Translations under genes and position numbers: made by a program | Shown here: positions 1 through 57,398 of the stretch, one piece after another | Position numbering within the stretch: position 1 is the stretch's first letter | How the letters are laid out: each line of letters begins with the position of its first letter | Assembly (NCBI RefSeq): GCF_036373705.1 | Contig: NC_089863.1 | Location: forward strand, 34,804,227-34,868,226 | Length of the DNA stretch: 64,000 nucleotides | DNA from: Amia ocellicauda | Lineage: Eukaryota > Chordata > Actinopteri > Amiiformes > Amiidae | Direction of reading: 5' to 3' | The notes under the pieces: generated by a model | The model's input: only the letters and a program-made list of their open reading frames with translations | What the model was told of the DNA's origin: nothing | Database searches by the model: none

Positions 1-880
1 GGGGGGAAACATAGTGAACCCTTTGCTGAGATCAACACACTGACACACAGGACTTTGTCCCATTCCATTTGTGTGTTCAATATAACATGGTTTCTCCTGC
101 AACGCGGTGAGAGATTTTAACGCCTGAGGAGCACGTTATATCGGGGTAGAGCTGTAATAAATAAAAGCCGAAACTTGTACACATCCCGTTTCTCTTCCTG
201 TCTCAGTCCTGATGCCCAGACACACTCCTACGTGCCTGCAGTCAATACAGCCTAATTGCAGAAGATCTAAATGCGCACAAAAGATGGCAACACATTTTAG
301 CATTCCTATCAGACTAGTTCTATCCACTCTAGTTAGCTAGTAACCGAAGCGAATGCTCGTGTTAGGCCTACATCTTACAGAAGCGCTAGTTATGCTTTTT
401 TTATAGAACAGTGTACAGCCTACAGTATTATAGATTTTAATACATTTTACATTTAATACACAAACCGTTGTGTGTTTTAGCGGAGACCCAGCAAATGTTG
501 AGGCTGCGAGACTACTACAGCAAGGCCAATATAATCTGCCCATGTTGGAAAAAACTAAAATTATTCTTCTTCTACAATGGCAATGCTTGCAATATCACCA
601 GTTTCAATCATGATTGCAAACTGAAGCTAACAATCTATCTGTACAGTTGTGAACTGTGTAATGACACAACGAACTTCCTGTACAATCTCAGCTACAGAAC
701 AATTGTGTATAAGTTTTGGCTTTTATTTATTACAGCTCTATAACGCGCTCCTCAGGAGCCAAAAACTCTCAACGCGTTGCAAGAGAAACCGCATTATATC
801 GAACACACAAATGGAATGGGACAAAGTCCTGTGTGTCAGTGTGATGATCTCAGCAAAGGGTTCACTATGTTTCCCCCCAG

Positions 881-960
881 CTGTACGAACCTCTGCCCAA
901 AGCAAAGCTGCCCCCCACGCTGCCCCTGCCAGAACGAGGGGCGCTGCCAGGGCCTGGACG
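881..960 (+). pseudogene. EGF-like exon in opposite orientation, copy 1
   Basis: An 80-nt exon-like segment with acceptor CCCCCCAG (ends 880) and donor GTAAGTG at 961. It encodes CTNLCPKQSCPPRCPCQ and then NEGRCQGLDG, with EGF-type cysteine spacing. It is the right arm of a long inverted repeat. Compared with the left arm (complete only in copy 2, 49392-49497) it lacks 26 bp, which removes the ICACLPGW part and shifts the frame, so it is probably non-functional. Confidence 0.5.
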
Positions 961-1044
961 GTAAGTGTGTAGGAAGACCAAGGATTGCAACTCAAAATGC
1001 AAAATCTCAAAACTTAAAGTTAAAATCCAGCCGAATGAGATAAG

Positions 1045-1226
1045 AATGAGCATCTTAATAACGACCCGAGTCGCCGCACATACTCGCCGGTCGCCGCAGC
1101 CGTAGGTGCCCAGGGGGCAGGGGTCCTAGCAGCGGGAGTCACTGTAGCCGGGCAGGGAGCGGTAGGCTCCGGTCAGGGGGTTGCACTGACCTCCGTTCTC
1201 ACACTGGAAGGCCCGGCCATCACAGG
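1045..1226 (-). pseudogene. EGF-like exon remnant (MEGF/PEAR-type), copy 1
   Basis: On the minus strand a splice acceptor (CTTGCAG) at 1227-1233 is followed by a cysteine-rich frame with CDGRAFQCENGGQCN, PLTGAYRSLPGY and, after an in-frame TAG, DPCPLGTYGCG. Spacing and wording resemble the tandem EGF/laminin-type modules of multiple-EGF scavenger-like proteins such as the MEGF10/PEAR1 group. Two expected cysteines are replaced, a stop codon interrupts the module, and I find no flanking EGF exons in frame. It lies about 360 bp past the MROH stop codon on the same strand and is probably a dead fragment of a neighbouring or captured gene. Confidence 0.55.
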
Positions 1227-1585
1227 CTGCAAGACAGCAACGGCGATACAGGGTTACACTGACCACACGACTGCTGGCCTGGAGGGTCATTTGTGCCGAC
1301 ATTTAAAAAATAAAAACTTATATAAATAAATAAATAGCCCCCGCATATAAATTCAGTCCCAGCAGACATGGCATGGTTAGACACTCGGGTGTGAATTGTA
1401 GGAACTGAAGGAGGGCAGAGATGAGATTTGAAGGCAGCAGTTGCCCAGGGAGTGAGAGTGAGGGCAGAGAGAGGGGACGGGGGCAAGAGAGGTCCGTGGT
1501 GTGTCAGAGGACATGATGAGATACAGCGGCCTGATTCGGTTACCCTGTGTAGCTCCTGAGGGGGTGACCATCTCCTCCCTTCTTC

Positions 1586-4500
1586 TCATGGCCAGCAGCA
1601 GAAGAGCCTCTTCCACAAGGGCTCCTTCGCTGGCCTCTGTCGCTGGGAGGCAGTGCAGCACTCCAGGGCCCGAGAGGCACAGCTCCTGACCTGTGCGTCA
1701 CTCTCCTCCTGCAGGGCCTGCGTCAGAGCTGGAGACACAGGGAGAGGACAGGCTGAACACACAGCTCTGGTGTGTCTGAGTGACAAGAGAGGGCACAGCA
1801 ACAGGCCGACGCACTCTGTTCCAGCCCAGCAGCAAAGACTGGCTCTTTACACACAGCCAGGACCAGAGCAGCAGTGACATGGTAACACACTGACGCACTC
1901 AAGGGCTGCAATACCTCCGACGCTCTGATCCACCCATCGACGACTGAGGAGGGACTGTGGGATGTTTTTAATCAGGGACTCTGTGGGTCAGAGAAAGCAA
2001 CACTGAGTCACAATTCAGCACAGATCTCAGCTACAATGTGCCTATGAGCTCCATCACGGGCCCATATCCTGCCCAGCTGTGTCTCATCTCCTCACCTGTA
2101 AAGACGGCGGCACTGGCTCTGACTTCAGGAAAGCGGCTGCTCAGGCAGTACAGGGCGCAGCTGAAGGACCAGTCCAGGGCCTCAGGGAAATCAGACGCCT
2201 AGAGAAGACAGGGATCAGATTCGGGGACTCTCAGCAGACCTGTAACTCAAGAGCCACAAACATGCAGCATCTCTCTGTCCTTAATACGCAACAGAATGGC
2301 CATACTGTCCTTACCCAGAATGCAAGGTCGTCCAGGAAGGCGCGAAAGTCCAAAACCCCTTCCTCCTGGTTCTTTGAGATGAGCCTCCTGATGGTGCTCA
2401 GTTCTGGCGCTGACCCACTGTTGTTCAAGGTCAGGAGGCAGGCCTACACACGAGACACAAGCTGATCCTCAACACTCTGCACTGATGCCTTGACACAGCG
2501 GCACGATCTGAACGGAACATCTCAAATTTTACGTTTTTGGTCACTACCCAACGTTTAAAATGTTATGCCCCAGTGGCCTCTGATCTGCCCTTACCTGGGT
2601 CACCTCATTGCTGGGGTCTCGGAAGTGCAGCGCCAGGCACACCAGCGCCCCCTGTAGCTCCCATTTGATGTGGGCCGTCACTGCCTGGCATCGGCACAGC
2701 TCACCCAGCACGTTGGCGCCCACACAGCGCAGCTCCGCGTCGTCCTGGAAACAAGCAGGGGGGGGGGGTCAGGCACAGAGTGGTGACAGCACAGCCAGTG
2801 ACACACTGAGCACAACAGCCTGCAGGCCAGACACCGAAGCCTAAAACAGCAACTCACTCTTTCCCAGAGCACAGTGACCCTGTGCAGGACGTCTGCAGCG
2901 ACATCCCGGGCGACGCCGTCCCTTCTCAAGTGGGGCAGGACCTGTGAGAGGGAGGACAGAGCTCCCAGGACCGCCTGCCTGTCGGTCACGTCTGTATCCT
3001 GCAGGGCCGAGCAGATGATGGCCAGCAGTTCCCGGCTGTGTTCTTCCACCTGCATAGAGACACCCAAAGCACCCTGTCAGCACGTATACCCCCAAAGTGA
3101 AGAATTGAAACATCGCCATGTCCGGTGGCAGGCGGTCCTGCATTGCACACTGTCCTTACCTGGGCGGCAGTGGCTCTCCCCAGGCCTTGGTATAGCTGCA
3201 GTCTCACAAGCACAGAGGAGTCCTGGGCTTGGCGCTTCAGGGTCTTCACAAGCACGGCCTTCAACTGCTTCTCTGAGCCGCACAGCAGCTGCAAGACAGG
3301 AGAGACAGTGAGAGCAGCTCCCCGGCAACGCACAAGCTGGGAGAGCGAGGCGCCGTTAGAGCTGCACACAGAGACACACTCACCTCAGAGAAGAAAGCCG
3401 TCGCCGTGACTCTGTGCTGCTCCCGGTCAGAGCTCAGGAAAGGGACAAGGACCTTCACGATGCCTGGGAGCTGCAGGCCACCGTGCTGAGCCATGGCCCT
3501 GGAGGACAAAGGGACAGCTAGTGAGCAGACAATAAATATGAATATGTTCCTGTCAGTGCAGTCTGTGATGAATAGAGAGACCCGTACCTGGCCAGGAGAC
3601 GGACCCCCTCGGTGTGGCTCTTGGAGCTCCACAGCAAAGCCCAGGCCGCCTCCTGCTCCAGTTGCTCCATCACTGTCCCCAACTGGGCCTGGAGAAGTAG
3701 GGCCCGCACAGCCAGCATGGTTTCTCCGAGGATCTCACTGTGGCCCATCTGCAGAAGGAGGGCCCCAAATGGTTGGGGGGCGGCTAGCAGCTCCTGCACA
3801 GCACAGGTCACCTGACACAGGGAGAGACACACAGGGTCACACTCAGAGAGAAGGCACCCAATTTACAGCACTATATCTTTGAAAGCGTCACAGAGAGATG
3901 TACTCACAGTCAGGGTTTCGTGCCCAGCGGGCGAGGTGCTCATGAGTTTTCTCATGAGGAACGCCAGCAGCCTGCGGGACAACTTGCCCTCAGCACCCAA
4001 GGCCCTCCACAGCGCACAGATGGAGCTGGGGGAGACAGAGACCCAGTGAGACAGACACACAGGAGCTACTCGCTGTGACACACGAGCCGATCAACACTGC
4101 GGCCAGCCACTGTGAAAGACAGACCCTTGTGTGTGGCTTACCTGTCCAGCGGCAGGGCTCGGCTTAGCAGCATCACGGCGAGCACCTCCGGGCGCCCAGA
4201 CACGAGGCGGACGACCACTCTCAGCTGCCGGTTAGTCAGGTGGAGCAGGCAGGGCTGCAGTGATTCCAGGATCTCAGAGACCTGGAGGACAGATGAGACA
4301 GGCGCTCAGTGTGCCGCCCAGCGTAGCGAGAGGAAACACGGCGAGAGACTCCAAACTGACCCTTACCTGCCTTGTCAGCTCAGCTCGACGGGCCTCCAGG
4401 ACACGAAAGCAGACGGAGCTACAGTCCTGGGGGAAGGAGGGCTGGCCTGGAATGGACTGGGTGTTCCCTGTAATCAAATTTGAGGTTTGGTAGGGAAAGG

Positions 4501-6187
4501 ACAGGACAAATTAATCGATCACAGAGATCAGTAGAAACAATACAGTTACAGGCTGAGAGTGTGTGTGTTTCGAAGTGTTGCTGATGACAGCAGCAGGTCA
4601 GACAGCACTGAGAGCACAGTAGCGCAGTGGGACAGGACGGGGGGACAGGACGGTACCTGCAGCGATGAGGAGGTGGGCAAGAATCAGCCCGGACGCAGCC
4701 CGGCTCGGCTCACTGACGCTTGTCATCTGCTGAATAATGAATCTGGCGACCATCTTTGGGAAGGCGGTGGCTGTGGGAATAAGGCAGGCAGCACAGAGCA
4801 GTGAGGTCACGACACAGGCCAGCGGATCAGAACCAGGACCCTCTCCTGAGTGAAAGAAGAGAGACGTACCGAGGAGTGGAATGGGGCTCAGGAACACGCT
4901 GTGCTCGTCCGTGGGCAGCTGGCTCTCCCGACGGGCGCGCATCTGAAGGAGACGGGCGCGGACCTGAAGGAGAAAGATGTGGTCACTGCAAACCCAGGGG
5001 GAGGCGTCGCTCCACTGCACAGAGTCGGCACAACAGAGCAGGGTCTGACCTACCTCCTGGTGCAAGCTCCTCAGCAGGACGTCCACAGAGGAGCGGATTA
5101 TATTACGGTCCGAGCCCAAGGCCGCCAGGACGATGTAGCGCGCATTCTACAATAAAGAAACACAAACTGCACTGTGGGCTGGGTTCACAGACCCCAATCA
5201 GCATGACTCAAGGGCTCCTCAGCATATGTTTGCGAATCTGGCTACGAGCTTTTAACTTCTAAGACAAAGTATCAACCTAAAAACTGTATAAGAAACTAAA
5301 CCAAACCCTTATCCTGATGTTAAACATAAAACCAAGCCTTTAATCTGGAGCCGGTCTGATCTATCCCACCCCTGCTACCCCAGTCAGCAGAGAAAGCCCT
5401 ACCTGGACCAGGACTTCACCATTCGAGCTGCGTTTGTACAGCGCCACTGTGGTGTTGATCAGCCCGCTCAGTCTGGCCCCGAGATTCGCAGGGCACAGCA
5501 GGGGTGTCAGGGCAGCCATGGCAGCCACTACTGCCTCATGCACCTTCAGGATGGACACAGAGACCGGTCAGTGTGGGCAACGCCAAGAGGGCAAAAGAGC
5601 AACAATTCAGAACAAGGGGGAGAGATGGTAGTACGTTAGGATTATCAGTATACAGGGTGTACAGTGATTTATACTGTGGCAATCCTCTCCCTGTAGATAA
5701 CTCACCCTCCCCAACACATTGTGCCTCAGAACCAGCTGGCAGAGGATCACTGGGCCATAAATCCTGACTGGCCATGTGTGGAGCTGGATGGTTTACCAGT
5801 CCATGATTGACAATCACATTTCCCAGCGGCCCATACCTGCAGGTTCAAGACTTCCACTATGTACCACCTCTGCAAAGTTGAGTATGCAGTGCCCATGACT
5901 GGAGAGAAGTCCTGCTTCCTCAGGGTGGGGTCAGCGCTCCCTCTGGGGCCAGAAATGAACTCCTGAATGCTCTCAGAGAAGTTTGTGAGCACTGGGAAAT
6001 GATAAACAGACACCGGGGTCACCCTCCATGCGACACACACGCTTCACTGATATCTGTCCTTCCAGGAGTCAGCTGCAACCTTCACTCACCTGAGCATAGC
6101 ACCATCCTGACCTCTGACTCGGTGGCCCTGATGAGCACAGGATTCAGCCCCTGGATAATGTCCCTGAGACGAGGCACCATTCCGGAC

Positions 6188-6224
<37 letters not shown>

Positions 6225-7445
6225 CAGGTGGTTACGGGTCTTCAAAAAACAGGTCAGTTCCCTGTTGTAAGAACAGTGGCTTCAGGAATCGAAGCAGCAG
6301 GCAGACTCACCATTTGCTCATGACAGACGTCCCAAAAAGGTCAGCCATATGGGGTCTGGTTGCACATCTATCCTGTACAAAATTTCCAGAGCTGCCAAGA
6401 TCTCCTGGAGAAAACGGGATCCTAGGGCCAGCAGGATGTCACTGGTTGCTTGCTGTGTGTCAGGAGGCACGTTCTGGGTCAGAGGAATCATTATACAAAA
6501 AAACAGCAAGGTCTTTGTCTAATGTGCATGTTTCAGAGCACCTCACAGGAGGGAGTGACTCACCGGATCCCTGCCCATCATTCCAGCTGCCATAGTGATG
6601 ACCTTCCCGGCTGTGGAGGGGCTTATGGCCTCAATCTGGCTTGTCAGCAGCTTTCCCATGGCCTGCAGGAAGGGGGTCTCATGGTGCACCTGAGCAAAGG
6701 AACACAGGAGAAGGAGCTCAAGAGCGGTGTGACACAGAGCACCCAACACTGAGCCCTGCATCACTCCGAAGAACCATTACAATACAAAAAGGCCTCGCGA
6801 GGATCAATGTCTCTCTTCTCTGCATGATTGACAGCGTTACAGCCTTGAACCCTCTGTGCACAACGACACTGAGAGGTGTATGGATTGCCAAAAACTCAGC
6901 CACACAATGTACACACTTTATAAGCTGCCAAATCAACTCCAGAAAACATAAAAAACTCAGAAGGCATGATTCCTACTGACAGACAAGTCCCAAGTCTCAC
7001 CCAGTGGTCCCTCTGCAAGTAACCGACACACCACAAACAGAAGTCGTCTGGGTGGGCCACGTCGGAGAAAGCCACTATCTTCTCCTGCAGCTCTTGCTCG
7101 GGGGCCTCTGCGTCAAGGGCACGCTGGAGAGCAAACATCTTCACTGAGGAGACAATACCAAGAAATAAATATGGTCAAGATCAAGTCCAGCACATACTTA
7201 TAGAACAGCAGCAACACGTGGACGATCAGACATTCTGCTGTCTGTCACTGGAGTCTTCAATTAAGCGCAGACCTCATGTCTGTAATTCCTCTGTAGGATA
7301 CTCCGAAAATACATGTGCAGATGAAATCCAAATATCAGATATTTAAAGGAAGAGCTCCAAACTGAGGATTGTATTTCTTGTTACTAGTCAATAAAAAGGA
7401 CTCAAAACAAATAGGCAACTCACCTAAGGCCTCAAAACCATCCAT
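1586..7445 (-). CDS. Maestro heat-like repeat (MROH) family gene, copy 1, with an in-frame TGA
   Basis: I could chain 21 exons on the minus strand, all with AG/GT borders and consistent phase: 7424-7445, 7001-7143, 6564-6689, 6311-6473, 6090-6188, 5837-5991, 5403-5543, 5054-5146, 4870-4963, 4657-4770, 4367-4467, 4142-4281, 3908-4025, 3588-3811, 3384-3498, 3160-3288, 2858-3049, 2595-2744, 2315-2443, 2096-2198, 1586-1728. They give 897 residues, starting MDGFEAL and ending RLFCCWP. The product is alpha-helical and leucine-rich, as expected of HEAT-repeat solenoids. Segments such as SGMVPRLRDIIQGL and NFSESIQEF resemble MROH N-terminal repeats; this is family recall, not a search. One in-frame TGA (6318-6320, codon 149) interrupts exon 4 just before its donor. 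The protein is shorter than MROH1/2 (about 1600 aa). The molecular role of the family is poorly known. It could be a recently inactivated gene, a nonsense allele or a base error. Confidence 0.8.
6192..6223. repeat. (CA)n microsatellite in MROH intron 4, copy 1
   Basis: CA dinucleotide run directly upstream of the exon 5 acceptor. The copy 2 run at 55691-55720 is one unit shorter. Confidence 0.9.
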
Positions 7446-7921
7446 CTTGGTGTGGTAATACTAAATTAAAACAGAAGAATTCTGGGTTATGTTTCATTTC
7501 ACTTTATTGATTGAATTATTTTGTGTGATTAAACATAGTATGCTGACCATTGGTGCATTAGAGTGAAAAAAATCAAGTCAAAGAATGATAAAGTGTAATT
7601 TATGGTTGTGAAGCAAAGATATGTCTGAGTCCAGATCTGCCCGACTTCATATATGCCTACAATAATCTTTAACAAATTAAAACAAAAGCCTTCTGTTAAT
7701 ACTTATATTTACATCAATTTCAACGTTTTATTGTTGTACTTTGTCAAATTAATTTACTAAAGCAATGTAAGCAACGGGGTATATTACTCATTCAAGAATT
7801 GTGTGTGTGTGTTGGAAAGGGGCATTTGGAGGTGTGATTGCCCCCCCCTGGAATCTGGACTTTGACTGTACCTTGACCAAGAAATTTGGACCCTGACACA
7901 AAATAACTGACTACCCCTGCA

Positions 7922-14004: not shown

Positions 14005-14077
14005 TGCCAAAACCCAGGATTGAACCAGGGACCTTTAGATCTTCAGTCTAACGCTCTCCCAACTTAGCTATTTCAGC
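14005..14077 (-). tRNA. tRNA-Phe (GAA)
   Basis: A 73-nt cloverleaf on the minus strand. The acceptor GCTGAAA pairs with TTTTGGC through two G-U wobbles. The A box TAGCTAAGTTGG and B box GGTTCAATCC fit the pol III consensus. The anticodon loop CTGAAGA gives GAA (14042-14044), and the discriminator is A. A TTTT terminator follows immediately (14001-14004). The one visible fault is a D-stem mismatch (position 13 is A instead of C). It matches vertebrate tRNA-Phe closely. It stands alone here; a functional gene or a slightly decayed copy are both possible. Confidence 0.75.
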
Positions 14078-20685: not shown

Positions 20686-23466
20686 GCTGAGAAGATGACT
20701 TCCTCCATCACTACTGCCAATGGTCTGGTCATTGTCACCCAGGTTTTGCCACAGAGGCAAGACTCAGCTCCTTCTGTACCTGCTGTTTCCATAAACAATG
20801 AACAACCACAGTTCACACCTGGGAACAAGCTGCCTGCAATGGCCAGGAACTTCCTAAAACGAGAACCTAGACCTCTGGGGGTGAGTATGTTCTCAGTGTT
20901 GTTGTTGTTGTTGTTATTAATATCTATCTATCTGTCTGTCTGTCTGTCTATTTATTTTTCAGTCACATTTCTTCAAGGGTCTACTACTATGGGTTGCATT
21001 TCTTTGTTTTAAATGAGGAAATCAGCGTTTTATTGTTTACATTTTTGCTGGATTTCCTTTCCTTTTCATTGTGCTTTAAATTTGTAATCAACCTTCCTTT
21101 TTTAAACTTATAAACTTTAAAACTTTAAACTTGTAGCGTAAGGTACACTTATGCATTTAAATTAAAGAAGTGAATTTATAGTATCACCTTATCACGAATC
21201 CTGGAATCTTGTAGAACTAAATTTCTGTAATAATTGGACGCAGACACCAATTCCAAAGATATAAATTGTCAAATTTATTCAAAAACAAAGACTAAATGTA
21301 GCACTACACTAATTATACAAAAGGGAAAAACTAATTAAAATTCAACTCTAGATCAACAAATCAAAGACAAATCACTTCCATGACCAAATCAAAGACCATG
21401 GGATCGCATATGATAACGCACAAATCGTTAAACAAAAAAGGTTATAAACATATTGACTACAATACCGGTTAGTAAGACGAAGGTGAGTCTCATTAGTATT
21501 GTTAGTCAGACATTAAATCACTACGCAGGTTAGTATTTATGTCAGGTAACTTCTCGTTATATATACACTCACCTAAAGGATTATTAGGAACACCTGTTCA
21601 ATTTCTCATTAATGCAATTATCTAACCAACCAATCACATGGCAGTTGCTTCAATGCATTGAGGGGTGTGGTCCTGATCAAGACAATCTCCTGAACTCCAA
21701 ACTGAATGTCTGAATGGGAAAGAAAGGTGATTTAAGCAATTTTGAGCGTGGCATGGTTGTTGGTGCCAGACGGGCCGGTCTGAGTATTTCACAATCTGCT
21801 CAGTTACTGGGATTTTCACGCACAACCATTTCTAGGGTTTACAAAGAATGGTGTGAAAAGGGAAAAACATCCAGTATGCGGCAGTCCTGTGGGCGAAAAT
21901 GCCTTGTTGATGCTAGAGGTCAGAGGAGAATGGGCCGACTGATTCAAGCTGATAGCAGAGCAACTTTGACTGAAATAACCACTCGTTACAACCGAGGTAT
22001 GCAGCAAAGCATTTGTGAAGCCACAACACGTACAACCTTGAGGCGGATGGGCTACAACAGCAGAAGACCCCACCGGGTACCACTCATCTCCACTACAAAT
22101 AGGAAAAAGAGGCTACAATTTGCACAAGCTCACCAAAATTGGACAGTTGAAGACTGGAAAAATGTTGCCTGGTCTGATGAGTCTCGATTTCTGTTGAGAC
22201 ATTCAGATGGTAGAGTCAGAATTTGGCGTAAACAGAATGAGAACATGGATCCATCATGCCTTGTTACCACTGTGCAGGCTGGTGGTGGTGGTGTAATGGT
22301 GTGGGGGATGTTTTCTTGGCACACTTTAGGCCCCTTCGTGCCAATTGGGCATCGTTTAAATGCCACGGCCTACCTGAGCATTGTTTCTGACCATGTCCAT
22401 CCCTTTATGACCACCATGTACCCATCCTCTGATGGCTACTTCCAGCAGGATAATGCACCATGTCACAAAGGTCGAATCATTTCAAATTGGTTTCTTGAAC
22501 ATGACAATGAGTTCACTGTACTAAACTGGCCCCCACAGTCACCAGATCTCAACCCAATAGAGCATCTTTGGGATGTGGTGGAACGGGAGCTTCGTTCCCT
22601 GGATGTGCATCCCACAAATCTCCATCAACTGCAAGATGCTATCCTATCAATATGGGCCAACATTTCTAAAGAATGCTTTCAGCACCTTGTTGAATCAATG
22701 CCACGTAGAATTAAGGCAGTTCTGAAGGCGAAAAGGGGTCAAACACAGTATTAGTATGGTGTTCCTAATAATCCTTTAGGTGAGTGTATATCAGTCTCAT
22801 TTACGTTTAGGTGCCGAGAAAGATCCTATCATTACTTGTTACCACAGTTTCCCTTAACTGATTATTATTCAATGATTAAGGATAGGCAGGGCCACCTATA
22901 ATCTGGTGTCTATTAACTTGTGTCAATTTCAGACTAAACAGTTAAACAGGAATGAGAAGATATTTCTCGGCGTTGACTGATTTTATTTCTAAAATTCGGC
23001 TTCGGTTCGGCTTTGTCCAAGAACTTCCACTCAGTCGATGCTCCTGGAAGTTGCCAAACAGATTTTCCACTGGTTTGAAGGCTCCAAGGTTGTGCACAAA
23101 ATCTTTGTAAGCAGGGTTCCACCGTAGTTACTTGAAGACAAAGTCTTTGAGGAAAGCAGGGCCCTGTTCGTTCCAAGGGTCAAGTTTCTTAAGACTCAAA
23201 TAGCTATTTAAATGACTGACACTTTCGTATACAGTCGACTTAGTCAATTGTCCAGCTGTAAAACTCCACTGATCAGGTGGGGACAGGCGGTCAGCGCAGT
23301 CTGTAAAGTTCTTTATTTAATAAAGTCCTTTAAAAGAATTCTTCGTACGGCTCAATCTCCTTCTCCCAGTTTAACTCTTCTGTTGCCGGCAAAGACTTGG
23401 TTGGTTTCTGGTTCCGGTTCTGGCAACAGAGCTACAGGTTGAGCTGTGGCAGCGAGTTTCTGGTTC

Positions 23467-23502
<36 letters not shown>

Positions 23503-26500
23503 CCGTGCGCTGTTCTTTATAGTCTGTCAGATCAATAGGTGATTGGTTTTTGAGTTCTTGAGATTGGATTTCGGTTTCAGCCCTCAGTGTCGTATTGGAG
23601 GGGGCTTGATTTATGACTGATGTAAATCCATGCCATCTTTTGGAAATGCCGTTTGGCCCGGGTTCGTAGCTCTATGTCGGGATTTCGGCTCTCGTCCACT
23701 TCAAAGAGTTTTTATTACCCACAGGCCCCTTTCTCCAGACATCTCATAGCAGGATTCAACGTATTTGGCCTCTTCTCGGTGCCATCCTCCCCAAAACTGT
23801 CACTTTGATGCAAACCAGTTCCAAGCTGATGAGCTAAGGAAATCTGATAACTTTGTGGGGGAGAGGTCTTCTTTAGATCAGTGCTTCAGCTCAGAGCTAA
23901 AATGCTCTTCTCAAAATACACCCAACATAACACTACAAACTTATTTCAGTCTAATGATCAAAAAATGAAAGCCATAATTTAATTATTTGAGTCAGGCACT
24001 GACTTGTATATCAGGAATAGCAACTTAGCAATGTAATTCAATGACTCATTTATCGGGGCCTAAGGCCAGGCACGTGCACAGATAGACCCCAGGTGATGCT
24101 CAAGCACCTGCCCTTTTGGCCTCTGTCTAGATGATTGCCCTTTTTGCAAGACATTTTTTTTCTATTTCTTTTTCTAATGCTATATTTTAGTTTTTAAATT
24201 TGGCCCATGGCATCAATTCTCAATTATAAGCATGCTGTAATGCCTGACAACTGCATCTGAGCTCTAATTCTGTGAGACTGCATGATCCCCTGCCCATCCC
24301 TCTTCAACTTCCCTCGTCACAGCCACCACAGTTAACGCCCGCAAATCGAGCGCCCTGCGGAGCAGCATCCGCGTCTCCCTGACCTGCCTTAATTGGTAAC
24401 AGTTGGGTAACGATAGTGTTTGCCCCAAGCCTTGACATTGTTTGTCACTGTTGTGAAATTAAACCACTACTAAAACATGTCAATACAGCCAGCCTAACTT
24501 AGGCAATATCCCACCATTAAGCTTAACAACAAGCAAGCTAGTCTGGTGTAAAATAGCGTCGTCAATGAAAACGACTGAACTCTGATAGGTTAGTTCCTTT
24601 GTCAGGCAACTGAAACAAATAAATACGCATTACGTGGTTAATATTCTATGCAATTATATTTGGATATCAGAAACATTAGCCGACCTAGATAGATAGAAAT
24701 AGTGAATGCTAAAGACCATTGTCTCTGTGTGAATTGATAATTTTGTAGAAATCTGTTGAGTATATTTACACCGTGTAACTTTTTTTTTTTTTTTTGGTTC
24801 CTGGGTAGTAAGTGTTATTTCCTAATTGCTTATTCCTCAAAAGTATAGAAAATGGCTATTATTCCCCACAAACTTTGCTTTTGTGACCAGGATATTTTGA
24901 AATTGACCTATTTTCCAGAACATTCCAGATAGATTCAGTGCTGAGTAAACTTGGAGTAACTTCTAGAACTTTCTAGATAGAAATATAAATAGTAGTATAA
25001 ATGCAGGGGCCTTAAGCCCACCAGTTCAGTTTAGTTCCAGCTGCTTAAGTCGATACATATCTGCATTTTTCTGAGATGGCATCAAGAGGTGCAAGCATCC
25101 GGCAGACGCATTTTGCTATGTCTGCTGCCAATTTATCAAGAAAAGAGCAAGAAGTACTCAGTGGAAGCATCTGCTAAGATGTGTGAGGCATACAAGGCAT
25201 ATTTCAGTATACCTTTCTGGGATCAAGACAAACCCTGGGCACCTGATTTCATCTACAAGCACTGCAACAAACTCTGGAAGGTAAGATGGACAATTGGTGC
25301 TCGGAATTTTATGTTATAAAATTTGTAAAAATAATATAAAATTGAAAAAGTTTTTAATTTTAAAATGTTTACAAATTTCAATGTTATTGAAAAAATATAT
25401 CATATATGAAAAATGAGAATCTCTTGTAAATGTATTTACAAAATTTATTTTTGTAGGATGGTACAGAGGGGAAAGAGAGCCATGAAGTTTGCTATCCTAA
25501 GAATTTGGCGGGAACCCACTGACCACTCAAGCAACTGCTACTTCTGTGTGGTGGACCCTTCCAAATGTCGGACTGGCAAGAATGCACCTACTATCACGTA
25601 TCCTTCATCTATCGCCCCGGTGCCACAGTGCCATGAGCTCCACGTACCCACTCCTCCAGAGAGAGAGCAGCTGTCTTTAGAAGAGAGCAGCAAGTCAGAG
25701 AGCGAGGAACACGTTGTAGATCCAGATGACAATTTCAGAGGTGGAGCTGAGGAGAGGAACCCATACTACCCCAACCAAAAAGACCTCAACGACTTGATTA
25801 GAGATCTTGGTCTCACCAAGTCCAGTGCTGAGCTTTTGACATCTAGGCTCAAGCAGTGGAACTTGTTTGATGAAAGTGTGCAAGTCACAGATCAGAGGAA
25901 GCGTCACTAACCTTTTTCCAGCTTCTTCACCCGTCAAGATGGGCTCCGTTTCTGCCACAATGTGACCAGTCTGTTTGAGGCAATCGGAATCGCCTGTAAC
26001 CAGAATGAGTAACCGGTGCCTCTTCATTGACAGCTCATCCAGGAGCCTCAAAGCCGTGCTGCTCCATAATGGTAACAAGTACCTGTCTCTTCCCCTGGCT
26101 CACTCGGTGCACCTCAAAGAGGATTATGATGAGTATGGTTGGAAGGTCATAGGAGACTTCAAATTGGTGGTATTCCTGATGGGTCTCCAAGGCAGTTTTA
26201 CCAAGTTTCCCTGCTATCTTTGCCTTTGGGACAGCAGGGACACCAAGGCGCACTATCACAGGCAGGACTGGCCACCGCAGACCGAGTTCTCTGTGGGGAG
26301 GAACAACGTCAAGTGGGAGCCACTGGTGGACCCCCGGAAGGTGCTGCTGCCACCACTGCACATCAAATTGGGCCTTATGAAACAATCTGTCAGAGCTCTA
26401 GATAAGGAGTACCTTCAAGACTTCTCCCCTAAGCTGTCTGAGGCAAAGGTCAAAGCCGGTGTCTTCGTTGGACCACAGATAAAGAAGATCCTGGGGTGCA

Positions 26501-29500
26501 ATGAATTCCCCAAGAAGCTCAAGAAGTAAGGGGAAAGCGGCTTGGAACAGCTTTGTCACAGTGGTTCGGGGCTTCCTGGGCGATCACAAGGTCAAAAACT
26601 ATGTGGAGCTGGTTGAGACTCGGGTGAAGAACTTTGGCACAGTGGGCTGTAAGATGTCCCTCAAAGTCCATATCCTTGATGCTCATCTTGACAAATTCAG
26701 GGAAACATGGGAGCGTACTCGGAGGAGCAAGGCGAGCGCTTCCACCAGGATATACTGGACTTTGAACGCCGCTACCAAGGACAGTATATCGAGAACATGA
26801 TGGGAGACTACATTTGGGGGCTGATTCGTGAAAGTGATTTACAGTATAATCGTAAATCTCGAAATACTACTCACTTCTAAATCTTTTGTAGTCATTTTTG
26901 TATTACTTTAGTATAAATACATGTTAATTTGGATTCAGATGTTGTTTCTTCTGACTTTATGTAAACGAAAAGACACAAATTCGCCCGTTTTCTCAATGGA
27001 AATAGGTAGATTTCAAAATGTCACTGTCCTGGTCACAAAAGCAAAGCTTGTGTGGAATAATAGCCATTTTCTATACGTTGAGGCATAAGCAATTAGGAAA
27101 TAACACTTACTACCCAGGAACAAAAATTGTGTTAGTGGTATTAAACATCTGCATGAGTGTATGGGTATTGAAATAAAAAATATGTAAGTAAGTAAAAGAT
27201 GTGCTACTGTATGTAACTTTATTTTTTATAAATAATTATGAGAGGGGTGCCCTTTTTTCGCCCCCCAAAATGTCTGTGCACGGCAATGCCTAAGGCTGTT
27301 CTTGTAACTGAATTTCTTTGTTTTTCTATAGTTGTTATTGATCAGGTTATTTTAGTTTTTTGTGATGTTTAATCAGATGAAAGGTACAATTTCCTGTTAA
27401 TTATTTATAACACAGAAGTGTTGTATAAAGTCTATAGGCTTCTTTATGTAAGAGCTCTGATGCCATGTGAGAGAAAAAACCCCTCTGAATTTCAACTTAA
27501 TGATGATAGTGACATTAGATTTCTTCTACGGGACTGGGGAGTTGAAGAAGACCTACTTGAATCTTTCAATGCACTGATTAGCTGTACTCTGTCTATATAA
27601 CAAAATAATATTCATGCTGTCTTCATAGAAACTTCTGCATTTGTTCAACATAACCATTTTCTTTACCGCAATTGGCACACACTCTCTCTGGGTAATGTCT
27701 GTAAGTTATTGTTTCATTGAAGTACAGTCATCCCCTGTCGTCTCATCTTATGTCGTTCCGCACTTTCATCAGCAACATTGCCCTGAGCAGAGCTTCATTC
27801 TGCAGTAAGCGCTTGCATCGAAATCATCTCTGCTCTCTAATAACTGTTTTTTACGGTTCATTTAACTGTTTACTGTTAACTCCTGAATTGTCACGATGGT
27901 TTCAAATAGGGATGCTTCTGCTTCAACATCTGTCTCAACTTACGTTGCCGGTCTCTGGAACAATTACGACGTTACTTGGCAATTACTTTGGGATCGTTAT
28001 TGATTGTGAAAGCTTCCATCCAGATGGCATGTCGACTACAACCCTCAATGCAGCCATTCATTCCGATGCCATAATTTAAGTTTGTCTTGTGAATCAATAT
28101 GCAAAATTTAATTTGGACCTCTAATGCAGTATTGCTATCTTCATAAATGGTGAGCAAACCTGAGTTTTACACCCTGTGGATCAATTACATTTAGAATCTG
28201 TCTTATCGTATCCTGTGTCACAATAATAAACCCTCTTTGGATTGCACAGATGTAACCACCGATAACCCTGCATCTGTCCCGATTTCTCAATTGAATTATG
28301 TATAAACAACCTGATCCAGTCCGAATATTGTTTTCTCCTGTAAAGTTCAAGTTTTTGGCATGTACTCTCTTCAAAATTCTGTAACTTATAATAATAATAA
28401 TGATCATGTGCTAACATTGCCAATATCTCCTTATTAGTAAACACAAGTCTAAAGTAGAATCTTAAAGATCTGCTATTTGAGGCATTGTGTAGATTTTGAG
28501 GCATAATGCTTCTGTCTCATTTTTGCTTTTGTTCTAGCTCCATCATTGGAGTTTCAGTCAAAATCGAGTTTTTTTCCCCTCTCTCACATGACCCCAGGAG
28601 TCTTCCATTCTTCGTATACCAGAATCGATATTGAACACACTTCTCTGGGTGTGTAGAGGTTTCAGAAATTCTAAGCATACACCTGTGAAGAAGTAAGTTT
28701 ATTACAAAAAATGTATAAATATAGGTTAATCCAGAGCTCTCTTCTCGTATGAAGTTCAGAAAGTTTTTATATTTTGTTGTAATCCAATTTTACATGTAGT
28801 AATTATATAGGCATAATAATGAACATATGCCTGAGATTATTTCATACTGCTGTTGTTGTGTTTGATGTGTTGAAAACTGCTTATGTGGCACTGGTCAAAT
28901 TGGTATCAGACTTTACTGCTGGTCAGCATGCTTGTGATGGAGCAAGGCCCATCCCTTTGCAAAGATGTTGAAAAAAAAAAACCCAAAGGCTTACCTGGAG
29001 TGGGGTTGTGGAGCAGCCATCTTGGGAAAGTAGGGGGGAGGTTACAGAGGCCATCTTGACAGGGGATTTTATAAACCTGAATTGCCTTTGACTGTTGACA
29101 TGGGGAGGGGGTCAATATTGTTTGCAGTGTTATTCCCTTTGTTTATAGTTTTAGATTTAGGTTTGAATTGAATATCACATTTTATTATAAGTTTATTATT
29201 TTTATTTGAAACCTATTTTTGTAACATGTGTCTGGGGGTTATATGATAGGTCTTTTAGTGTCACTCCTATTTTTGAATGGTTGGATCTAGGGGGTGGGGC
29301 TAAGCAGCCAAAGTATAAAAGCTGGTTCAAGGGCCTTAGTAAGGGCCCTCATGGGCATTGTAGAGATTCACTTGTTTGTTTGTTTGTTTGTTTGTTTGTT
29401 TGTTATGTAGGCAATGTGTTGCAGTGACTACATTTTTTGAAGCCTTGCTGCCCTTGTGTGTCTGACTTTGGGACCACCACAATGCAACACAATCCTCCTA

Positions 29501-34994: not shown

Positions 34995-36164
34995 CAGTGA
35001 GGGGGAAAAAAGTATTTGATCCCCTGCTGATTTTGTACGTTTGCCCACTGACAAAGAAATGATCAGTCTATAATTTTAATGGTAGGTGTATTTTAACAGT
35101 GAGAGACAGAATAACCACAAAAGAATCCAGAAAAACGCATTTCAAAAAAGTTATACATTGATTTGCAAGTTAATGAGGGAAATAAGTATTTGTAGTACTT
35201 GGTGGGAAAACCCTTGTTGGCAATCACAGAGGTCAGACGTTTCTTGTAGTTTGCCACCAGGTTTGCACACATCTCAGGAGGGATTTTGTCCCACTCCTCT
35301 TTGCAGATCCTCTCCATTAAGGTTTTGAGGCTGACGTTTGGCAGCTTGAACCTTCAGCTCCCTCCACAGATTTTCTATGGGATTAAGGTCTGGAGACTGG
35401 CTAGGCCACTCCAGGACCTTAATGTGCTTCTTCTTGAGCCACTCCTTTGTTGGCTTGGCTGTGTGTTTTGGGTCATTGTCATGCTGGAATACCCACGACC
35501 ACGACCCATTTTCAATGCCCTGGCTGAGGGAAGGAGGTTCTCCAAGATCCTCCCGTGTAGTTCTGGGCTGATTCCTCACCGTTCTCATGATCATTGAAAC
35601 TCCACGAGGTGAGATCTTGCATGGAGCTCCAGACCGAGGGAGACTGACAGTTATTTTGTGTTTCTTCCATTTGCGATTAATCGCACCAACTGTTGTCACC
35701 TTCTCACCAAGCTGCTTGGCGATGGTCTTGTAGCCCATTCCAGCCTTGTGTAGGTCTACAATCTTGTCCCTGACATCCTTGGACAGCTCTTTGGTCTTGG
35801 CCATGGTGGAGAGTTTGGAATCTGATTGATTGATTGCTTCTGTGGACAGGTGACTTTTATACAGGTAACGAGCTGACATTAGGAGCACTCCCTTTAAGAT
35901 CTAATCTCAGCTCATTACCTGTATAAAAGACACCTGGGAGCCAGAAATCTTGCTGATTGATAGGGGATCAAATACTTATTTCTCTCATTAACATGCAAAT
36001 CAATGTATAACTTTTTTTAAATGCGTTTTTCTGGATTTTTTTGTTGTTATTCTGTCTCTCACTGTTAAAATACACCTACCATTAAAATTATAGACTGATC
36101 ATTTCTTTGTCAGTGGGCAAACGTACAAAATCAGCAGGGGATCAAATACTTTTTTCCCTCACTG
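34995..36164 (-). mobile_element. Tc1-like element (DD34E type), internally deleted
   Basis: Inverted ends of about 200 bp start CAGTGAGGG and read toward GTATTTGATCCCCTGCTGAT. TA duplications lie at 34993-34994 and 36165-36166. Transposase relic on the minus strand: ATG at 35802-35804 ([10 protein letters not shown]), HTH part, then a jump over the first catalytic Asp to QHDNDPKH and [13 protein letters not shown]. Spacing of the last Asp and Glu is the classical 34. Stop at 35274-35276. Non-autonomous. It inserted 30 bp past the last MS4A poly(A) signal. Confidence 0.85.
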
Positions 36165-49497: not shown

Positions 49498-50379
49498 CCG
49501 GGGGGAAACATAGTGAACCCTTTGCTGAGATCAACACACTGACACACAGGACTTTGTCCCATTCCATTTGTGTGTTCAATATAACATGGTTTCTCCTGCA
49601 ACGCGGTGAGAGATTTTAACGCCTGAGGAGCACGTTATATCGGGGTAGAGCTGTAATAAATAAAAGCCGAAACTTGTACACATCCCGTTTCTCTTCCTGT
49701 CTCAGTCCTGATGCCCAGACACACTCCTACGTGCCTGCAGTCAATACAGCCTAATTGCAGAAGATCTAAATGCGCACAAAAGATGGCAACACATTTTAGC
49801 ATTCCTATCAGACTAGTTCTATCCACTCTAGTTAGCTAGTAACCGAAGCGAATGCTCGTGTTAGGCCTACATCTTACAGAAGCGCTAGTTATGCTTTTTT
49901 TATAGAACAGTGTACAGCCTACAGTATTATAGATTTTAATACATTTTACATTTAATACACAAACCGTTGTGTGTTTTAGCGGAGACCCAGCAAATGTTGA
50001 GGCTGCGAGACTACTACAGCAAGGCCAATATAATCTGCCCATGTTGGAAAAAACTAAAATTATTCTTCTTCTACAATGGCAATGCTTGCAATATCACCAG
50101 TTTCAATCATGATTGCAAACTGAAGCTAACAATCTATCTGTACAGTTGTGAACTGTGTAATGACACAACGAACTTCCTGTACAATCTCAGCTACAGAACA
50201 ATTGTGTATAAGTTTTGGCTTTTATTTATTACAGCTCTATAACGCGCTCCTCAGGAGCCAAAAACTCTCAACGCGTTGCAAGAGAAACCGCATTATATCG
50301 AACACACAAATGGAATGGGACAAAGTCCTGTGTGTCAGTGTGATGATCTCAGCAAAGGGTTCACTATGTTTCCCCCCAG

Positions 50380-50459
50380 CTGTACGAACCTCTGCCCAAA
50401 GCAAAGCTGCCCCCCACGCTGCCCCTGCCAGAACGAGGGGCGCTGCCAGGGCCTGGACG
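50380..50459 (+). pseudogene. EGF-like exon, right arm of inverted repeat, copy 2
   Basis: Same as 881-960: intact acceptor and GTAAGTG donor, cysteine-rich EGF-like frame, 26-bp internal deletion relative to the inverted partner at 49392-49497. Confidence 0.5.
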
Positions 50460-50543
50460 GTAAGTGTGTAGGAAGACCAAGGATTGCAACTCAAAATGCA
50501 AAATCTCAAAACTTAAAGTTAAAATCCAGCCGAATGAGATAAG

Positions 50544-50725
50544 AATGAGCATCTTAATAACGACCCGAGTCGCCGCACATACTCGCCGGTCGCCGCAGCC
50601 GTAGGTGCCCAGGGGGCAGGGGTCCTAGCAGCGGGAGTCACTGTAGCCGGGCAGGGAGCGGTAGGCTCCGGTCAGGGGGTTGCACTGACCTCCGTTCTCA
50701 CACTGGAAGGCCCGGCCATCACAGG
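50544..50725 (-). pseudogene. EGF-like exon remnant, copy 2
   Basis: Identical to the copy at 1045-1226, including the acceptor, the in-frame TAG and the lost cysteines. The damage therefore predates the block duplication or was homogenised with it. Confidence 0.55.
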
Positions 50726-51084
50726 CTGCAAGACAGCAACGGCGATACAGGGTTACACTGACCACACGACTGCTGGCCTGGAGGGTCATTTGTGCCGACA
50801 TTTAAAAAATAAAAACTTATATAAATAAATAAATAGCCCCCGCATATAAATTCAGTCCCAGCAGACATGGCATGGTTAGACACTCGGGTGTGAATTGTAG
50901 GAACTGAAGGAGGGCAGAGATGAGATTTGAAGGCAGCAGTTGCCCAGGGAGTGAGAGTGAGGGCAGAGAGAGGGGACGGGGGCAAGAGAGGTCCGTGGTG
51001 TGTCAGAGGACATGATGAGATACAGCGGCCTGATTCGGTTACCCTGTGTAGCTCCTGAGGGGGTGACCATCTCCTCCCTTCTTC

Positions 51085-54000
51085 TCATGGCCAGCAGCAG
51101 AAGAGCCTCTTCCACAAGGGCTCCTTCGCTGGCCTCTGTCGCTGGGAGGCAGTGCAGCACTCCAGGGCCCGAGAGGCACAGCTCCTGACCTGTGCGTCAC
51201 TCTCCTCCTGCAGGGCCTGCGTCAGAGCTGGAGACACAGGGAGAGGACAGGCTGAACACACAGCTCTGGTGTGTCTGAGTGACAAGAGAGGGCACAGCAA
51301 CAGGCCGACGCACTCTGTTCCAGCCCAGCAGCAAAGACTGGCTCTTTACACACAGCCAGGACCAGAGCAGCAGTGACATGGTAACACACTGACGCACTCA
51401 AGGGCTGCAATACCTCCGACGCTCTGATCCACCCATCGACGACTGAGGAGGGACTGTGGGATGTTTTTAATCAGGGACTCTGTGGGTCAGAGAAAGCAAC
51501 ACTGAGTCACAATTCAGCACAGATCTCAGCTACAATGTGCCTATGAGCTCCATCACGGGCCCATATCCTGCCCAGCTGTGTCTCATCTCCTCACCTGTAA
51601 AGACGGCGGCACTGGCTCTGACTTCAGGAAAGCGGCTGCTCAGGCAGTACAGGGCGCAGCTGAAGGACCAGTCCAGGGCCTCAGGGAAATCAGACGCCTA
51701 GAGAAGACAGGGATCAGATTCGGGGACTCTCAGCAGACCTGTAACTCAAGAGCCACAAACATGCAGCATCTCTCTGTCCTTAATACGCAACAGAATGGCC
51801 ATACTGTCCTTACCCAGAATGCAAGGTCGTCCAGGAAGGCGCGAAAGTCCAAAACCCCTTCCTCCTGGTTCTTTGAGATGAGCCTCCTGATGGTGCTCAG
51901 TTCTGGCGCTGACCCACTGTTGTTCAAGGTCAGGAGGCAGGCCTACACACGAGACACAAGCTGATCCTCAACACTCTGCACTGATGCCTTGACACAGCGG
52001 CACGATCTGAACGGAACATCTCAAATTTTACGTTTTTGGTCACTACCCAACGTTTAAAATGTTATGCCCCAGTGGCCTCTGATCTGCCCTTACCTGGGTC
52101 ACCTCATTGCTGGGGTCTCGGAAGTGCAGCGCCAGGCACACCAGCGCCCCCTGTAGCTCCCATTTGATGTGGGCCGTCACTGCCTGGCATCGGCACAGCT
52201 CACCCAGCACGTTGGCGCCCACACAGCGCAGCTCCGCGTCGTCCTGGAAACAAGCAGGGGGGGGGGGTCAGGCACAGAGTGGTGACAGCACAGCCAGTGA
52301 CACACTGAGCACAACAGCCTGCAGGCCAGACACCGAAGCCTAAAACAGCAACTCACTCTTTCCCAGAGCACAGTGACCCTGTGCAGGACGTCTGCAGCGA
52401 CATCCCGGGCGACGCCGTCCCTTCTCAAGTGGGGCAGGACCTGTGAGAGGGAGGACAGAGCTCCCAGGACCGCCTGCCTGTCGGTCACGTCTGTATCCTG
52501 CAGGGCCGAGCAGATGATGGCCAGCAGTTCCCGGCTGTGTTCTTCCACCTGCATAGAGACACCCAAAGCACCCTGTCAGCACGTATACCCCCAAAGTGAA
52601 GAATTGAAACATCGCCATGTCCGGTGGCAGGCGGTCCTGCATTGCACACTGTCCTTACCTGGGCGGCAGTGGCTCTCCCCAGGCCTTGGTATAGCTGCAG
52701 TCTCACAAGCACAGAGGAGTCCTGGGCTTGGCGCTTCAGGGTCTTCACAAGCACGGCCTTCAACTGCTTCTCTGAGCCGCACAGCAGCTGCAAGACAGGA
52801 GAGACAGTGAGAGCAGCTCCCCGGCAACGCACAAGCTGGGAGAGCGAGGCGCCGTTAGAGCTGCACACAGAGACACACTCACCTCAGAGAAGAAAGCCGT
52901 CGCCGTGACTCTGTGCTGCTCCCGGTCAGAGCTCAGGAAAGGGACAAGGACCTTCACGATGCCTGGGAGCTGCAGGCCACCGTGCTGAGCCATGGCCCTG
53001 GAGGACAAAGGGACAGCTAGTGAGCAGACAATAAATATGAATATGTTCCTGTCAGTGCAGTCTGTGATGAATAGAGAGACCCGTACCTGGCCAGGAGACG
53101 GACCCCCTCGGTGTGGCTCTTGGAGCTCCACAGCAAAGCCCAGGCCGCCTCCTGCTCCAGTTGCTCCATCACTGTCCCCAACTGGGCCTGGAGAAGTAGG
53201 GCCCGCACAGCCAGCATGGTTTCTCCGAGGATCTCACTGTGGCCCATCTGCAGAAGGAGGGCCCCAAATGGTTGGGGGGCGGCTAGCAGCTCCTGCACAG
53301 CACAGGTCACCTGACACAGGGAGAGACACACAGGGTCACACTCAGAGAGAAGGCACCCAATTTACAGCACTATATCTTTGAAAGCGTCACAGAGAGATGT
53401 ACTCACAGTCAGGGTTTCGTGCCCAGCGGGCGAGGTGCTCATGAGTTTTCTCATGAGGAACGCCAGCAGCCTGCGGGACAACTTGCCCTCAGCACCCAAG
53501 GCCCTCCACAGCGCACAGATGGAGCTGGGGGAGACAGAGACCCAGTGAGACAGACACACAGGAGCTACTCGCTGTGACACACGAGCCGATCAACACTGCG
53601 GCCAGCCACTGTGAAAGACAGACCCTTGTGTGTGGCTTACCTGTCCAGCGGCAGGGCTCGGCTTAGCAGCATCACGGCGAGCACCTCCGGGCGCCCAGAC
53701 ACGAGGCGGACGACCACTCTCAGCTGCCGGTTAGTCAGGTGGAGCAGGCAGGGCTGCAGTGATTCCAGGATCTCAGAGACCTGGAGGACAGATGAGACAG
53801 GCGCTCAGTGTGCCGCCCAGCGTAGCGAGAGGAAACACGGCGAGAGACTCCAAACTGACCCTTACCTGCCTTGTCAGCTCAGCTCGACGGGCCTCCAGGA
53901 CACGAAAGCAGACGGAGCTACAGTCCTGGGGGAAGGAGGGCTGGCCTGGAATGGACTGGGTGTTCCCTGTAATCAAATTTGAGGTTTGGTAGGGAAAGGA

Positions 54001-55686
54001 CAGGACAAATTAATCGATCACAGAGATCAGTAGAAACAATACAGTTACAGGCTGAGAGTGTGTGTGTTTCGAAGTGTTGCTGATGACAGCAGCAGGTCAG
54101 ACAGCACTGAGAGCACAGTAGCGCAGTGGGACAGGACGGGGGGACAGGACGGTACCTGCAGCGATGAGGAGGTGGGCAAGAATCAGCCCGGACGCAGCCC
54201 GGCTCGGCTCACTGACGCTTGTCATCTGCTGAATAATGAATCTGGCGACCATCTTTGGGAAGGCGGTGGCTGTGGGAATAAGGCAGGCAGCACAGAGCAG
54301 TGAGGTCACGACACAGGCCAGCGGATCAGAACCAGGACCCTCTCCTGAGTGAAAGAAGAGAGACGTACCGAGGAGTGGAATGGGGCTCAGGAACACGCTG
54401 TGCTCGTCCGTGGGCAGCTGGCTCTCCCGACGGGCGCGCATCTGAAGGAGACGGGCGCGGACCTGAAGGAGAAAGATGTGGTCACTGCAAACCCAGGGGG
54501 AGGCGTCGCTCCACTGCACAGAGTCGGCACAACAGAGCAGGGTCTGACCTACCTCCTGGTGCAAGCTCCTCAGCAGGACGTCCACAGAGGAGCGGATTAT
54601 ATTACGGTCCGAGCCCAAGGCCGCCAGGACGATGTAGCGCGCATTCTACAATAAAGAAACACAAACTGCACTGTGGGCTGGGTTCACAGACCCCAATCAG
54701 CATGACTCAAGGGCTCCTCAGCATATGTTTGCGAATCTGGCTACGAGCTTTTAACTTCTAAGACAAAGTATCAACCTAAAAACTGTATAAGAAACTAAAC
54801 CAAACCCTTATCCTGATGTTAAACATAAAACCAAGCCTTTAATCTGGAGCCGGTCTGATCTATCCCACCCCTGCTACCCCAGTCAGCAGAGAAAGCCCTA
54901 CCTGGACCAGGACTTCACCATTCGAGCTGCGTTTGTACAGCGCCACTGTGGTGTTGATCAGCCCGCTCAGTCTGGCCCCGAGATTCGCAGGGCACAGCAG
55001 GGGCGTCAGGGCAGCCATGGCAGCCACTACTGCCTCATGCACCTTCAGGATGGACACAGAGACCGGTCAGTGTGGGCAACGCCAAGAGGGCAAAAGAGCA
55101 ACAATTCAGAACAAGGGGGAGAGATGGTAGTACGTTAGGATTATCAGTATACAGGGTGTACAGTGATTTATACTGTGGCAATCCTCTCCCTGTAGATAAC
55201 TCACCCTCCCCAACACATTGTGCCTCAGAACCAGCTGGCAGAGGATCACTGGGCCATAAATCCTGACTGGCCATGTGTGGAGCTGGATGGTTTACCAGTC
55301 CATGATTGACAATCACATTTCCCAGCGGCCCATACCTGCAGGTTCAAGACTTCCACTATGTACCACCTCTGCAAAGTTGAGTATGCAGTGCCCATGACTG
55401 GAGAGAAGTCCTACTTCCTCAGGGTGGGGTCAGCGCTCCCTCTGGGGCCAGAAATGAACTCCTGAATGCTCTCAGAGAAGTTTGTGAGCACTGGGAAATG
55501 ATAAACAGACACCGGGGTCACCCTCCATGCGACACACACGCTTCACTGATATCTGTCCTTCCAGGAGTCAGCTGCAACCTTCACTCACCTGAGCATAGCA
55601 CCATCCTGACCTCTGACTCGGTGGCCCTGATGAGCACAGGATTCAGCCCCTGGATAATGTCCCTGAGACGAGGCACCATTCCGGAC

Positions 55687-55721
<35 letters not shown>

Positions 55722-56922: not shown

Positions 56923-57398
56923 CTTGGTGTGGTAATACTACATTAAAACAGAAGAATTCTGGGTTATGTTTCATTTCACTTTATTGATTGAATTATTTTG
57001 TGTGATTAAACATAGTATGCTGACCATTGGTGCATTAGAGTGAAAAAAATCAAGTCAAAGAATGATAAAGTGTAATTTATGGTTGTGAAGCAAAGATATG
57101 TCTGAGTCCAGATCTGCCCTACTTCATATATGCCTACAATAATCTTTAACAAATTAAAACAAAAGCCTTCTGTTAATACTTATATTTACATCAATTTCAA
57201 CGTTTTATTTTTGTACTTTGTCAAATTAATGTACTAAAGCAATGTAAGCAACGGGGTATATTACTCATTCAAGAATTGTGTGTGTGTGTTGGAAAGGGGC
57301 GTTTGGAGGTGTGATTGCCCCCCCCTGGAGTCTGGACCTTGACTATACCTTGACCAAGAAATTTGGACCCTGACACAAAATAATTGACTACCCCTGCA

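What the first reader, a model, noticed from the sequence alone, without database searches (positions are those of the whole stretch)
24786..27126. Transposon with an orphan, widely distributed protein of unknown class
About 125-bp inverted repeats enclose a gene for a protein with the landmarks FIDSSSRSLKAVLLHNGN, FPCYLCLWDSRD, HIKLG and GLIRESDLQYNRKS. I remember near-identical uncharacterised proteins across animals, always repetitive, but no accepted transposase class. The Asp, CxxC and His motifs hint at an RNase-H-like zinc-binding nuclease. The present copy is broken, but its structure (single intron, long TIRs) defines the element. This is the best candidate for a poorly described system here.
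Basis: partly seen in the sequence, partly recalled or inferred. Interest (0 to 1): 0.75.

Follow-up and report, generated by a model that had tools for sequence, protein, structure and literature searches.

The report
Broken copy of a Chapaev3 transposon
The stretch is a decayed copy of a cut-and-paste jumping gene; its ends, its three-base target mark and its enzyme's signature residues match the published Chapaev3 group, so it is an ordinary, already classified kind of element and not an orphan.

Summary
In detail: long inverted repeats enclose a broken two-exon gene with the quoted motifs. But the element is larger than stated. Copies from the same genome (30 loci) show that it starts with CAC and ends with GTG, at window 24769-27137 (2,369 bp), with TIRs of about 140 bp. 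Exact 3-bp target duplications, none longer, flank 7 of 9 testable copies of this family and 3 of 3 of a sister subfamily, mostly TWA inside A..T; the window copy has TTA/GTA, one mismatch. The protein has D, D, C(2)C, LH, H(4)H and E, and a cysteine-rich first exon. These are published hallmarks of Chapaev3 (CMC clade): CAC..GTG ends, TWA duplication between A and T, C(2)C/LH/H(4)H, and for Merrow/Garfield two exons and 2.3-2.45 kb (PMC4079192). So the 'orphan class' reading is refuted; the zinc-binding RNase-H-like nuclease reading is supported by inference only. Not shown: a direct sequence match to a named Chapaev3 (none held here), a fold (predictor off), an empty site. Low interest, high confidence in the class.

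The parts
24769..27137 (+). whole element, CAC...GTG, 2,369 bp
   Evidence: same termini in other copies
24769..24913 (+). left terminal inverted repeat (CACCGTGTAAC, poly-T, GGTTCCTGGGTAGTAAG...)
27000..27137 (-). right terminal inverted repeat; its outermost part is 4 bases shorter than in most copies
24766..24768 (.). left target-duplication position, TTA
27138..27140 (.). right target-duplication position, GTA (one mismatch to TTA in this copy)
25076..25280 (+). exon 1, cysteine-rich N-terminus (frame broken in this copy; open for 70 codons in L024)
25281..25456 (+). intron, GT..AG, 176 bp
   Evidence: read from sequence; the GGTAAG donor recurs in copies; no transcript seen
25457..26880 (+). 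exon 2, transposase core, several frame breaks
26029..26031 (+). first catalytic Asp (FIDSS)
   Evidence: 19 of 21 copies keep it
26155..26157 (+). second catalytic Asp (IGDFK)
   Evidence: 24 of 28
26212..26223 (+). C(2)C motif CYLC
   Evidence: Cys 26 of 28 and 27 of 27
26359..26361 (+). LH motif His (PPLHIKLG)
   Evidence: 25 of 28
26669..26686 (+). H(4)H motif HILDAH
   Evidence: His 22 of 24 and 23 of 25
26734..26736 (+). proposed catalytic Glu (SEEQGE)
   Evidence: 18 of 22, and 5 of 5 in the sister subfamily

Best explanation
A dead copy of a Chapaev3-group DNA transposon (CMC clade), of the two-exon Merrow/Garfield type. Likely mechanism: an intact relative makes a DDE transposase whose cysteine-rich N-terminus binds the TIRs; the RNase-H-like core, carrying a zinc-binding C(2)C/H(4)H insert, cuts at CAC/GTG, and the excised element joins a staggered cut at ATWAT, giving a 3-bp TWA duplication. 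Shown here: ends, TIRs, duplication, target preference, motif pattern, exon layout as read from sequence. Inferred from the family: catalysis, fold, zinc binding, TIR binding, cut-and-paste; any hairpin step as in RAG/Transib is only analogy.
For: TIR hit with the gene in 28 of 30 loci. CAC..GTG termini. Exact 3-bp direct repeat and none longer (lengths 1-8 tried) in 10 of 12 two-ended loci, 7 of 9 of this family and 3 of 3 of the sister subfamily; 8 of the 10 are TWA, 7 of those 8 within A..T. ATWA directly outside CAC at 17 of 26 distinct ends against 1.25% of positions in the same loci. C(2)C, LH, H(4)H and 53 / 193 residues between D, D and E in L004. Intron, and size near Merrow/Garfield: window 2,369, L028 2,388, L027 2,373 bp against 2,451 and 2,289 bp; the other two-ended copies of the family are shorter, 1,454-2,222 bp. 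A sister subfamily in the same genome has its own CAC-type ends and TAA/TTA duplications in L039-L041. Hallmarks of the group: PMC4079192 (sections 7 and 14 and passages), PMC12730594 (passages).
Against: No direct alignment to a named Chapaev3 transposase was possible. Profile-profile comparison with the genome's own Transposase_21 proteins found nothing significant; these are of EnSpm type, not Chapaev, and the profiles are shallow. L015, L027 and the window copy lack an exact duplication; L016 (ATA) and L018 (TTT) are not TWA. L007, L010 and L024 have TIR hits on both sides but a terminus that could not be recognised, and were not tested for a duplication. In the sister subfamily the first His of H(4)H is kept in only 2 of 5. 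No empty site was found in the one such search that was answered (L016). The RAG1 control search did not complete.
Confidence: 0.93

Rival explanations
1. An EnSpm/CACTA element proper (Transposase_21 type), which also has CAC ends and 3-bp duplications.
For: CACTA-like terminus and 3-bp duplication; C(2)C and H(3-4)H are shared by the whole CMCT clade (PMC12730594 passages).
Against: No Transposase_21 match for any of 45 family fragments at E up to 1, while a Transposase_21 protein of the same genome scores 39 bits; hhalign between the two E 0.45 and 0.72 (shallow profiles). TWA inside A..T is the published Chapaev3 pattern.
Confidence: 0.05
2. A transposon of a new superfamily that converged on Chapaev3-like ends and motifs.
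For: No Pfam match above cut-off and no PDB, viral-contig, phage or prokaryote-genome relative found.
Against: Ends, duplication and its context, three motifs, size and exon layout all agree with the published group; convergence in all of them is unlikely.
Confidence: 0.02
3. The inverted repeats belong to another, nested element and the gene is a host gene.
For: None found.
Against: The same repeats accompany the same gene at many unlinked places, several with their own target duplications.
Confidence: 0.001

Closest known systems
Merrow (Chapaev3 group; lampreys, sturgeon, paddlefish, catfish, tuna, dragonfly; PMC4079192)
   Same: Two exons, about 2.4 kb, TWA duplication between A and T and C(2)C/LH/H(4)H motifs as published for the group, CAC..GTG ends as published for Chapaev
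   Different: Length 2,451 bp with exon 1 of 78 aa, against about 2,370-2,390 bp and 70 codons from the ATG used here; sequence identity not testable here
Garfield (Chapaev3 group; insects, bracovirus; PMC4079192)
   Same: Same layout and motifs; 2,289 bp, 78 + 478 aa
   Different: Reported from insects and an insect virus in that paper; sequence not compared. The sister subfamily L039-L044 could equally be nearer to it
Transib / RAG1 (PMC4411706, passages)
   Same: C(2)C and H(3-4)H between second D and E (PMC12730594); Kapitonov and Koonin place Chapaev3 in one superfamily with Transib
   Different: Transib makes 5-bp duplications (recalled); RAG1 is not among the hits of the PDB profile search at E up to 10
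EnSpm/CACTA (Transposase_21)
   Same: CAC ends, 3-bp duplication, C(2)C
   Different: No Transposase_21 similarity

Membership tests
[quoted passage not shown]
   window 24769 and 27137
Chapaev3 | 3-bp target duplication | tested here: met
   exact and not longer in 7 of 9 two-ended loci of the family (10 of 12 with the sister subfamily); window copy one mismatch
Chapaev3 | duplication is TWA, between A and T | tested here: met
   8 of the 10 exact duplications TWA, 7 of 8 in A..T; 17 of 26 distinct ends ATWA|CAC against 1.25% background; the published description says always, here it is a majority
Chapaev3 | C(2)C, LH, H(4)H motifs | tested here: met
   one search counts; first His weak in the sister subfamily (2 of 5)
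Chapaev3 | DDE catalytic triad | tested here: met
   D 19/21, D 24/28, E 18/22 copies (L004 counted); assignment of the Glu is by position and conservation, activity untested
Chapaev3 (Merrow/Garfield type) | two exons, short first exon | tested here: met
   intron 25281-25456 read from sequence; exon 1 open for 70 codons in L024; no transcript seen
Chapaev3 | N-terminal complex zinc finger (Chapa domain) | tested here: inconclusive
   cysteine-rich exon 1; only sub-threshold LIM E 0.0014 and zf-AD E 0.0027 in L024, neither of these in L020; no Chapa model held
Chapaev3 | sequence or tree placement with named Chapaev3 transposases | not testable with these tools
   no Repbase, no eukaryote protein collection
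EnSpm/CACTA | Transposase_21 domain | tested here: not met
   with a positive control; hhalign
hAT | 8-bp (5-8) target duplication | tested here: not met
   3 bp
hAT | hAT-type transposase | tested here: inconclusive
   no hAT model among Pfam matches; hhalign with a hAT profile of the same genome E 0.44 and 0.52, but the profiles are shallow
Kolobok | TTAA duplication (recalled) | tested here: not met
   3 bp
P element | 8-bp duplication (recalled) | tested here: not met
   3 bp

The most novel reading that the evidence does not exclude
Probability: 0.3. Interest if true: 0.25.

Novelty: new member of a known kind. Interest (0 to 1): 0.12.

Why it matters
No Pfam model matched any of 45 fragments above its cut-off in the copy used here, so automatic annotation would miss them; a model would be useful.

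Tried and rejected
Pfam, PDB by sequence and profile (8, 45), viral contigs (11, 59, 84), prokaryote genomes (60) and phages (13) gave no relatives; weak hits (GM_CSF, interferon, GRAS, LIM, zf-AD) are below curated cut-offs or, in the PDB, not significant. Peptide searches in papers gave nothing. Profile-profile tests against Transposase_21 and hAT profiles made from the same genome were not significant and say little: the profiles are shallow (Neff about 2.1-2.7); also Transposase_21 against hAT found nothing. I first took it for plain EnSpm/CACTA and moved to Chapaev3 after reading PMC4079192. I first wondered whether the window was rDNA: no rRNA match. The empty-site search for L016 found only the two flanks of that copy. 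Literature searches; passages only were also seen of PMC1636069 and PMC3630058, which did not decide anything.

Rows dropped before counts: of 32 pattern hits two do not start with CAC, one at window 30447 is a chance hit outside the element, L001 and L002 repeat the window's own end and L015 repeats L014, leaving 26. In one search the 12 loci are those whose two termini I could recognise; some ends were placed by hand (L005, L015, L026, L027, L039-L041); L001 and L002 repeat the window; L007, L010 and L024 were left out for an unrecognisable terminus. In one search L001 and L002 were left out, L004 (the query) counts as a copy, and per locus the first aligned letter was taken.

Full report
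What is there. The two inverted repeats and the broken gene are real. The quoted landmarks lie in the open stretches 25966-26529 and 26692-26880; further pieces are 25035-25319, 25410-25910 and 26483-26800; together they use all three forward frames. The window copy cannot make the protein.

Copies. The window is G000:C20:34804227-34868226 of a 988-Mb genome in 385 contigs. The 187-aa piece gives 150 scored matches from 164 candidates on many contigs; these are pieces, some copies giving more than one, and the tool calls its counts lower bounds. Of the 30 best, fetched as loci, 28 carry a TIR hit. Three copies lie within about 100 kb on C20 (34.737, 34.782, 34.830 Mb; the last is the window's own): the window belongs to a duplicated region, in line with a 7.9-kb stretch that repeats in the window at 99.4%, so these are not independent insertions.

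Ends. Comparing termini shows that the shared sequence runs past the stated ends. One end reads CACTATGTAACACAATTTTTGTTCCTGGG, the other CACYGTGTAACA, a variable T-rich run, then GGTTCCTGGG. In the window the element is 24769-27137. Direct repeats next to CAC and GTG are exactly 3 bp and not longer in 10 of 12 loci with two recognisable termini: L005 TTA, L016 ATA, L018 TTT, L020 TTA, L026 TTA, L028 TAA, L029 TAA, and in the sister subfamily L039 TAA, L040 TAA, L041 TTA; L015 (TTA/CTA), L027 (TAA/TTA) and the window (TTA/GTA) fail by one base. In seven of the eight exact TWA cases an A precedes and a T follows; L039 has G on the right. Over single ends, 17 of 26 distinct ends have ATWA directly outside CAC, against 1.25% of positions in the same loci.

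Protein. L004 has an open frame of 452 codons, L026 one of 287 that runs to the C-terminus. Together with other fragments (A1, A2) they show FIDSS, GDFK/GDLK, CYLC, PPLHIKLG, VHILDAH and SEEQGE. Positions in L004 give 53 residues between the Asp residues and 193 between the second Asp and the Glu. Most copies keep these residues. A second subfamily of the same genome (L039-L044), 26-43% identical to the L004 query over the longest aligned stretch of each locus, mostly keeps the Asp residues (3 of 3 and 5 of 6), the CxxC (4 of 5 and 3 of 4) and the second His (4 of 5), keeps the LH His and the Glu (5 of 5 each), and has the first His of H(4)H in 2 of 5; L039-L041 have TIRs beginning CACTGGACAACA or a near form. 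Exon 1 holds FCYVCG..CEHC in L024; LIM and zf-AD models match it below their cut-offs.

Comparison with the literature. PMC4079192 (sections 7 and 14 and passages read) states for Chapaev transposases the motifs C(2)C, LH and H(4)H; for Chapaev3 elements a TWA duplication between A and T; for Merrow and Garfield two exons, 2,451 and 2,289 bp, 78 + 484 and 78 + 478 aa; and for Chapaev in general CAC/GTG termini. It reports Merrow in lampreys, sturgeon, paddlefish, catfish, tuna and a dragonfly. [quoted passage not shown] PMC4411706 (passages read) puts Chapaev3 with Transib and RAG1 and describes a Chapa zinc-finger domain in Chapaev3. The hallmarks that could be tested were met, apart from the Chapa domain, which is inconclusive; sequence and tree placement are not testable here.

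Results against. Pfam, PDB, viral, phage and prokaryote searches gave no relative. Profile-profile comparison with EnSpm-type proteins of the same genome is not significant; this fits a lineage apart from Transposase_21, as Chapaev3 is, but is weak because the profiles are shallow. No structure model was possible. No empty site was found in the one answered search. The genome-wide count of termini and the RAG1 control did not complete.

Mechanism. Cut-and-paste by a DDE transposase is inferred from the family. What the sequence shows directly is past mobility: the same element at many places, with 3-bp duplications at most of those that could be tested.

Verdict. A decayed Chapaev3 transposon. 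Known kind; whether it is Merrow itself or an unnamed family is open.

Noticed in passing
window 1-7921 and 49500-57398: 7.9-kb stretch repeated at 99.4%, with further repeated blocks to 13256/64000: the window spans a recent duplication, offset about 49.5 kb in the window; the two same-strand element copies on C20 are 48.3 kb apart.
   Followed up: partly
window 21714-22754 (+): Open 346-codon Tc1/mariner-like transposase frame (HTH_Tnp_Tc3_2, DDE_3).
   Followed up: partly
window 35274-35900 (-): Sleeping Beauty-like Tc1 transposase fragment (HTH_SB, DDE_3).
   Followed up: partly
window 58228-59349 (+): 373-codon frame with a CCHC zinc knuckle, gag/ORF1-like.
   Followed up: partly
window 14005-14077 (-): tRNA-like match, 55.5 bits.
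   Followed up: no
L039-L044: A second, diverged Chapaev3-like subfamily in the same genome, with CACTGGACAACA-type ends seen in L039-L041.
   Followed up: partly
G000 contig C10 and many small contigs: 115 Transposase_21 matches in the genome, many with identical scores and spaced roughly 100 kb apart on C10, as if carried in a large repeated unit.
   Followed up: no
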